Translations under genes and position numbers: made by a program
Shown here: piece after piece, positions 10,593 through 10,725 of the stretch
Layout: the number at the start of each line of letters is the position of its first letter
Position numbering within the stretch: the stretch's first letter is position 1
Virus record (IMG/VR): IMGVR_UViG_3300040801_000571
Coordinates: 1-20,832 of that record
Source: a virus
Direction: 5' to 3' (one strand)
DNA: 20,832 nt
Notes under the pieces: generated by a model
Seen by the model: the letters and a program-made list of their open reading frames with translations, nothing else
Databases searched by the model: none
What the model was told of the DNA's origin: nothing

Positions 10593-10725
10593 CCTGAAGG
10601 GCACATACAGCAATCACTTCCATGCATATCAAGCCGCAAGTCCCGGTTCAAGTCCGGGGGTCCAGCAAGATGGTTGGACTTAGTGTAACTGGATAGCACA
10701 GCGTAGGAACGTGCCTTGACATAGG
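10593..10725 (+). ncRNA. Y RNA (YrlA type) with circularly permuted tRNA-like domain
   Basis: The ends form a Ro-binding-type stem. CCT (10593-10595) pairs with AGG (10723-10725), and GGCAC (10600-10604) with GTGCC (10711-10715). The flanking GAAGG and CTTGAC resemble the conserved strands of animal Y RNAs as I recall them. TTCCATGC (10618-10625) then pairs with GCGTaGGAA (10701-10709). Beyond lies a tRNA turned inside out. The T arm comes first (CCCGG, loop TTCAAGT, CCGGG, 10642-10658). Next is an acceptor-like stem GGTCCAG/TTGGACT (10659-10665, 10674-10680) closed by an eight-base loop. TA and a D arm follow, with stem GTGT/GCAC and the G18-G19-like GG at 10691-10692. There is no anticodon arm; the Ro stem takes its place, as in the YrlA RNAs described from Salmonella and other bacteria. 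The 3' strand overlaps the ribosome binding site of the next gene. Confidence 0.85.

What the first reader, a model, noticed from the sequence alone, without database searches (positions are those of the whole stretch)
10593..10725. Phage Y RNA carrying a complete circularly permuted tRNA mimic
The sequence shows T arm, capped acceptor-like stem and D arm in reversed order, closed by a stem with GAAGG and CTTGAC strands like the Ro-binding site of Y RNAs. The T loop TTCAAGT and the GG of the D loop are those of real tRNAs. YrlA RNAs with such modules are known from bacteria next to Rsr (Ro) genes; here the neighbour is a DUF2828 protein instead. That pairing in a T4-like phage may be undescribed.
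Basis: partly seen in the sequence, partly recalled or inferred. Interest (0 to 1): 0.92.

Follow-up and report, generated by a model that had tools for sequence, protein, structure and literature searches.

The report
Phage Y RNA carrying tRNA mimic
This phage carries a small cluster of probable non-coding "Y RNAs", one of which contains a rearranged copy of the tRNA shape, just upstream of a gene for their likely ring-shaped partner protein (Ro60-like); this kind of RNA-protein pair is already known from bacteria and other phages, so it is a real but not a new kind of feature.

Summary
10593-10725 is a Y-RNA-like element: a Ro-type stem (AGGGCAC/GTGCCTT-GAC) enclosing a circularly permuted tRNA-like module (T arm 10642-10658, capped acceptor 10659-10680, U8-A9, D arm 10683-10699). 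A covariance model built from 14 other phage modules, none from this window, matches the window once, exactly here (30.9 bits, E about 1e-8). Those modules are 98.6% paired, with compensatory changes in 12 of 16 pairs. Rfam's YrlA model does not match. "Complete" is overstated: there is no anticodon arm, only a 3-bp closing helix.

It is one of up to four Y-like elements (10405-10465, 10593-10725, 11171-11235, 11244-11312) between a Mom gene and the DUF2828 gene. The predicted DUF2828/DUF7788 fold matches Ro60, including a solved phage Ro60, so it is probably the phage Ro homologue, not something "instead" of Ro. Phage Ro/Y RNAs are already reported, so this is a new member of a known kind.

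Less expected: in other phages the tRNA mimic appears in different permutations, some with an anticodon arm and one unpermuted. In this window two Y stems overlap ribosome-binding sites. All function is inferred.

The parts
10593..10725 (+). Y2: Y-RNA-like element with permuted tRNA-like module (the finding)
   Evidence: Stem plus module read directly; fold; covariance hit 30.9 bits, E 1.2e-8
10598..10604 (+). 5' strand of the Ro-type stem (AGGGCAC), preceded by CCTGA
   Evidence: Pairs with 10711-10717 (GTGCCTT); same geometry in other phages
10607..10613 (+). ACAGCAA motif just inside the stem, recurrent in phage Y elements
   Evidence: Same motif in most of the phage Y elements found
10635..10637 (+). 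5' strand (CGC) of a 3-bp closing helix, counterpart of the anticodon stem; pairs with GCG 10701-10703
   Evidence: Fold of the core; a 5-bp counterpart is seen in L039 2178, L027 3157 and phage Douge
10642..10658 (+). T arm, 5 bp, T loop TTCAAGT
10659..10680 (+). Capped acceptor stem, 8 bp, loop AAGATG
   Evidence: 7 of 7 acceptor pairs show compensatory change in the other phages
10683..10699 (+). D arm GTGT-AACTGGATA-GCAC, preceded by T-A at tRNA positions 8-9
10711..10720 (+). 3' strand of the Ro-type stem, GTGCCTTGAC; followed by ATAGGA, the likely ribosome-binding site of ORF 10732-10962
   Evidence: repeat D3
10405..10465 (+). Y1: short Y-like element without tRNA module (TAAGGTGATT ... 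AATCACCTTG, motif TCTGCAAA)
   Evidence: Descriptor score 11.2; fold
11171..11235 (+). Y3: short Y-like element overlapping the end of ORF 10959-11234 (AATGTGCT-TACAGCAA ... AGCACGTTGA)
   Evidence: Descriptor score 8.9; chance rate about 6.6 per 316 kb at or above 8.5
11244..11312 (+). Y4: short Y-like element without tRNA module, in the leader of the Ro-like gene
   Evidence: 92%/91% copies of both Y2 ends; ribosome-binding site AGGAG 11307-11311 predicted paired at 0.89-0.98
11322..12821 (+). Ro60-like protein (DUF2828 + DUF7788 vWA domain, phrog_850 RNA-binding protein), 499 aa
   Evidence: Pfam, PHROG, AlphaFold2 pLDDT 85 / pTM 0.85, Foldseek to Ro60 E 1.4e-6
10732..10962 (+). 76-aa predicted membrane ORF directly after Y2
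   Evidence: only sub-threshold Pfam matches
10959..11234 (+). 91-aa ORF between the Y elements, no family

Best explanation
A phage-encoded Ro-Y ribonucleoprotein. Shown computationally: a cluster of up to four Y-like RNA elements, one carrying a circularly permuted tRNA-like module, directly upstream of a gene whose product is predicted to have the Ro60 fold. Inferred: the Ro-like ring binds the shared stem (AAGG.../...CTTGA plus the ACAGCAA motif), which stabilises the RNAs. The interior is a swappable effector part: short loops in Y1, Y3 and Y4, and a tRNA-shaped handle in Y2 that tethers or attracts tRNA-recognising factors (modifying enzymes, nucleases, repair enzymes) to the ring, as is thought for bacterial YrlA and for the Deinococcus Rsr-Y-PNPase machine. 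During infection this would remodel, repair or degrade structured RNA. My confidence in the identity (Y RNA with tRNA mimic beside a Ro homologue) is about 0.9, in the tether role about 0.5.
For: Permuted module; covariation across 14 other phage modules. Same module and the same ACAGCAA-flanked stem beside Ro-like genes in phages of Mycobacterium, Bacillus, E. coli/Salmonella and uncultivated viruses. Protein fold Ro60/TROVE, family phrog_850 RNA-binding. 40 Y-like stems against 6.6 expected by shuffling in 34 Ro-like loci. Synteny ThyX - Y elements - Ro kept in the nearest relative L002. A Listeria phage homologue of the protein is made and found in virions (PMC12282133).
Against: No transcript, binding or phenotype data for this phage. 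The Rfam YrlA model gives no hit in the window. R2 also scores 25-43 bits on tandem tRNA arrays, so its score alone is not specific; the absence of tRNA genes and the intact acceptor hairpin carry the argument. The nearest relative, L002, has only short Y elements and no module in its 25-kb fragment. No close homologue of the window's own Y2 was found, so its own pairs could not be tested for covariation. No sequence-level match of the protein to any solved Ro; the link is by predicted fold, with TM-scores 0.42-0.61.
Confidence: 0.72

Rival explanations
1. The Y stems at 10593-10725 and 11244-11312 act mainly in cis: the lower stem hides the ribosome-binding site of the next gene, and binding of the Ro-like protein shuts off its own translation, with free Y RNA relieving it. 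This can coexist with the trans role.
For: Y4 ends about 10 nt before the Ro-like ATG; AGGAG 11307-11311 is predicted paired at 0.89-0.98. Y2 places ATAGGA just before ORF 10732 in the same way (repeat D3). In L003, L007, L030, L037 and L039 a Y element also ends 42-76 nt before the Ro-like start.
Against: In the nearest relative the ribosome-binding site lies outside the Y stem (L002), so the overlap is not conserved. Pairing of Y2's site is weaker and mixed. Model-only.
Confidence: 0.3
2. The tRNA module is a decoy or competitive inhibitor for host or phage tRNA-cutting enzymes, part of an RNA damage/repair set, rather than a tether for a nuclease.
For: The window also encodes an Rnl1-type RNA ligase (PF09511, E 1e-15, 15593-16585) and an RF-1-domain protein at 4345-4743. 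In Salmonella, YrlA sits in an RNA repair operon and was proposed as a competitive inhibitor of an anticodon nuclease (PMC7790460). The window's module has no anticodon loop, so it could not be cut there.
Against: No direct evidence; RNA ligases are common in large phages. The ligase gene is 2.8 kb away and not shown to be linked.
Confidence: 0.2
3. It is a broken tRNA pair: the T arm of one tRNA gene followed by the D arm of the next, not a designed module.
For: Tandem tRNAs give the same arm order and score 25-43 bits with model R2.
Against: No tRNA or tRNA fragment beyond the module; an intact 8-bp capped acceptor with a 6-nt loop; it lies inside a Y stem whose ends recur at Y4; the same arrangement with compensatory changes in many phages.
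Confidence: 0.03

Closest known systems
YrlA RNA (Rfam RF02553), bacterial Y RNAs beside Rsr
   Same: Same order: T arm, capped acceptor, two nucleotides, D arm, closed by a helix and an outer stem (consensus structure shown).
   Different: No hit to the Rfam model in the window; closing helix only 3 bp; ACAGCAA motif and short sister elements nearby; Ro partner is of the DUF2828/DUF7788 type.
Y RNAs of mycobacteriophages (LeBron, Wilder and relatives, with 'Ro-like RNA binding protein' genes)
   Same: Y stem with [AG]CAGCAA motif, permuted tRNA module, neighbouring Ro-like gene; LeBron reaches 39.8 bits with RF02553. Phage Douge has the same breakpoint and the same T loop TTCAAGT.
   Different: There the module Y RNA lies downstream of the Ro-like gene; most relatives of Wilder keep an anticodon-like hairpin.
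Ro60 / Rsr proteins (1YVP, 9NFA; Thermus phage phiLo Ro60, 9L5Y)
   Same: Predicted fold matches with E 1.4e-6 to 9e-5; vWA metal-site-type motif DTSAS at residues 295-299.
   Different: 12-15% identity; no match by sequence; Pfam files it under DUF2828/DUF7788, not TROVE.
Listeria phage CKA15 ncRNAs near its Ro-like gene (PMC12282133)
   Same: Ro-like gene with upstream non-coding region; three short CAGCAA elements sit just upstream of the gene.
   Different: The most abundant CKA15 ncRNA region (26,236-26,727), suggested there to be possibly a Y RNA, lacks the motif.

Membership tests
Rfam YrlA (RF02553) | Covariance score at or above the curated 69 bits | tested here: not met
   No match up to E 5 in the window and E 10 in 10360-11330; phage relatives also stay below the cut-off
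Y RNA class (Ro-bound RNA) | Base-paired 5'/3' ends with the AAGG / CTTGA Ro-type stem | tested here: met
   10598-10604 with 10711-10717; same stem type in other phages and in Y1, Y3, Y4
Y RNA class (Ro-bound RNA) | Encoded beside a Ro homologue | tested here: met
   Ro-fold gene 11322-12821 starts 597 nt downstream
Y RNA class (Ro-bound RNA) | Binds Ro protein and is a stable small RNA | not testable with these tools
   Needs Northern/RNA-seq and a binding assay
YrlA-type tRNA-like domain | Permuted order: T arm, capped acceptor, U8-A9, D arm with GG | tested here: met
   order identical to the RF02553 consensus
YrlA-type tRNA-like domain | Pairing kept by compensatory changes | tested here: met
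   In 14 other phage modules: 98.6% paired, 12/16 pairs compensated, score 0.869 against 0.239 shuffled; not testable on the window's own lineage
YrlA-type tRNA-like domain | Substrate of tRNA-modifying enzymes | not testable with these tools
   Reported for YrlA (own recollection of Chen et al. 2014, not held)
Ro60/Rsr (TROVE + vWA) | Ro ring and vWA fold | tested here: met
   AlphaFold2 model and Foldseek; a prediction, not a solved structure
Ro60/Rsr (TROVE + vWA) | Sequence match to the TROVE family or a solved Ro | tested here: not met
   Pfam gives DUF2828/DUF7788 only; no PDB sequence hit
tRNA gene | ARAGORN or Rfam tRNA hit | tested here: not met

The most novel reading that the evidence does not exclude
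Phage Y RNAs are a modular scaffold into which a tRNA shape is inserted in several topologies: opened in the anticodon loop (this window; phage Douge; L039 2178), opened between positions 26 and 27 so that an anticodon-like hairpin is kept (FADO, BcoS-136 2575, Felix O1-like phages, Wilder), or unpermuted with the Y stem replacing the acceptor (BcoS-136 1938-2059). In this window, Y stems in the leaders also make the Ro-like gene self-regulating.
Probability: 0.3. Interest if true: 0.75.

Novelty: new member of a known kind. Interest (0 to 1): 0.48.

Why it matters
Ro-Y particles are shared by animals, bacteria and phages, and what phages gain from them is unknown. This locus links a protein family without an assigned function in Pfam (DUF2828/DUF7788, in 682 phage records) to Ro by predicted fold, and shows that tRNA-mimic Y RNAs not reached by the Rfam model occur beside it in well-studied laboratory phages such as the Felix O1 group. 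That makes the role of a phage Ro-Y particle directly testable by deletion.

Tried and rejected
Rfam at gathering and at relaxed E-values: no YrlA in the window. Whole-element folding energy: not better than shuffles. MAFFT on modules misaligned the acceptor, so a two-sequence model R1 was used to build a structural alignment (A7). Relaxed YrlA and R2 hits in tRNA arrays (KVP40, PX29, Citrobacter Ci1 and others) were read as likely tandem-tRNA artefacts and not counted. Protein-sequence search against PDB: nothing. Idea that the most abundant Listeria CKA15 ncRNA is a Y RNA: its sequence lacks the motif. Promoter and terminator scan: nothing above chance near Y2.

Full report
What is there. 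The window is a 20.8-kb virus record with phage genes including a UvsX-like recombinase, a split family-B DNA polymerase, ThyX, Mom and an RNA ligase. Between Mom (ends 10347) and a DUF2828/DUF7788 gene (11322-12821) lie about 970 bases with two small ORFs. The reported element, 10593-10725, has a Ro-type stem and, inside it, T arm, capped acceptor, U8-A9 and D arm in permuted order. Hallmarks of real tRNA are present: T loop TTCAAGT with C61, U8, A14, R15, G18-G19, A21, G10-C25. There is no anticodon arm; a 3-bp CGC/GCG helix closes the module where the anticodon stem would be. In the fold of the whole element the GCG strand pairs elsewhere.

Is it more than chance. A descriptor scan of 387 kb gives the window the maximum score of 19; three shuffles of the whole set gave a single hit of 17 and none higher. 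A covariance model R2 from 14 modules of other phages, with the window left out, finds one match in the window, at this place, 30.9 bits, E 1.2e-8 with rough calibration. Even R1, from two sequences, finds only this place (E 0.0027). In the 14 modules 98.6% of cells pair, 12 of 16 pairs show changes on both sides, including all seven acceptor pairs, and the covariation score is 0.869 against 0.239 for shuffles and at most 0.196 for slid partners. The alignment was fitted to the structure, which favours it, but the acceptor stem of the Felix O1-like element is visibly rewritten with compensation between wV8, SUSP2 and Mordin in a plain MAFFT alignment.

A caution. T arm followed by D arm also arises from adjacent tRNA genes, and both RF02553 and R2 score such pairs. 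The window has no tRNA gene, and its acceptor is an intact local hairpin, so this artefact does not apply here.

Not one but several elements. Both ends of the element recur at 11244-11268 and 11293-11315 (92% and 91%) around a short interior: Y4, the leader of the DUF2828 gene. Y1 (10405-10465) and Y3 (11171-11235) share the stem type and an ACAGCAA/TCTGCAA motif just inside it. In 34 Ro-like loci the stem-plus-motif pattern occurs 40 times against 6.6 in shuffles. In the nearest relative, L002 (53% protein identity), at least five such elements can be read by eye between ThyX and the Ro-like gene, none with a tRNA module.

The partner. The 499-aa protein has 682 phage records with relatives, many annotated 'Ro-like RNA binding protein'. 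Its AlphaFold2 model (pLDDT 85.1, pTM 0.85) has as its best four PDB hits two animal Ro60 complexes, a TROVE domain and Ro60 of Thermus phage phiLo. Sequence searches do not show this. So DUF2828/DUF7788 is most likely the phage Ro family.

Wider pattern in other phages. Modules fall into topologies. (a) Opened in the anticodon loop, with the anticodon stem as closing helix: this window (3 bp), L039 2178 and L027 3157 (5 bp), phage Douge (5 bp). (b) Opened between D arm and anticodon arm, with an anticodon-like hairpin kept: L003 3623, L007, L027 1557, L035, L038 and L039 2575. At least 4 of 5 pairs in the expected place in 6 of 12 modules has a chance of about 0.003 under a simple independence estimate, and most of these loops have a T at position 33. 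In ESh22 and Mordin the hairpin is degraded, so it is not essential. (c) Unpermuted D, anticodon and T arms with the Y stem in place of the acceptor: L039 1938-2059 (Rfam tRNA positions 6-65 at 1981-2043). Whether this variety has been described could not be checked; the key paper is not held and a text search for 'permuted tRNA' with 'Y RNA' found nothing.

What is known. Bacterial Rsr-Y-PNPase and YrlA biology is summarised in PMC7790460. Y RNAs in phages were reported in 2014 (Chen et al., RNA 20:1715), cited in PMC12282133, and a review on them is cited in PMC7765460. I recall that the 2014 abstract names phages, but could not read the paper here. PMC12282133 also found the Listeria phage homologue of the protein in virions and very abundant ncRNAs nearby. 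Of those, the most abundant region lacks the Y motif; three motif elements lie directly upstream of the gene.

Mechanism. Shown: structure-like conservation, clustering and a predicted Ro-fold neighbour. Inferred: Ro binding, trans function, and the role of the module as tether or decoy. The overlap of two Y stems with ribosome-binding sites suggests autoregulation in this phage, but the overlap is not conserved in the nearest relative.

Verdict. It is a new member of a known kind, of moderate interest, with an unresolved topological variety across phages as the most novel part.

Noticed in passing
L039 (Bacillus phage vB_BcoS-136) 1938-2059: A Y-like stem encloses an unpermuted tRNA-like domain (D, anticodon and T arms) whose acceptor stem is replaced by the Y stem; the same phage has two permuted versions.
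   Followed up: partly
L035 6363-6486 and 251 phage records, mostly Felix O1-like: An unannotated ~124-nt Y RNA with permuted tRNA module is conserved across Felix O1-like phages, about 2.4 kb downstream of the Ro-like start, in the tRNA array.
   Followed up: partly
L034 7734-7807 (Aeromonas phage PX29): A permuted tRNA-like order with a long cap loop and no recognisable Y stem, beside a tRNA-Ala gene; unclear whether permuted tRNA or artefact.
   Followed up: no
L077 (Listeria phage cka15), record 25384-25542, minus strand: Three tandem short CAGCAA elements directly upstream of CKA15_055, in a stretch with no annotated gene.
   Followed up: partly
window 883-2397 and 3240-4361: Family-B DNA polymerase apparently split into two genes with three small ORFs between them.
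   Followed up: no
window 17567-18553: Protein of unknown PHROG with a motif (GGSIASMLLGEKVNDFDLYF) that resembles nucleotidyltransferases of the CCA-adding type; possible link to RNA metabolism.
   Followed up: no
window 4345-4743: RF-1-domain protein (ribosome-rescue / peptidyl-tRNA hydrolase type) in a phage.
   Followed up: no
window 9610-10347: Mom-family DNA modification protein, 68.5% DNA identity over 338 bases to Pseudomonas phage PAN70.
   Followed up: no
window 218-291: A long near-perfect inverted repeat ending in a T run (terminator-like) inside ORF 200-640.
   Followed up: no
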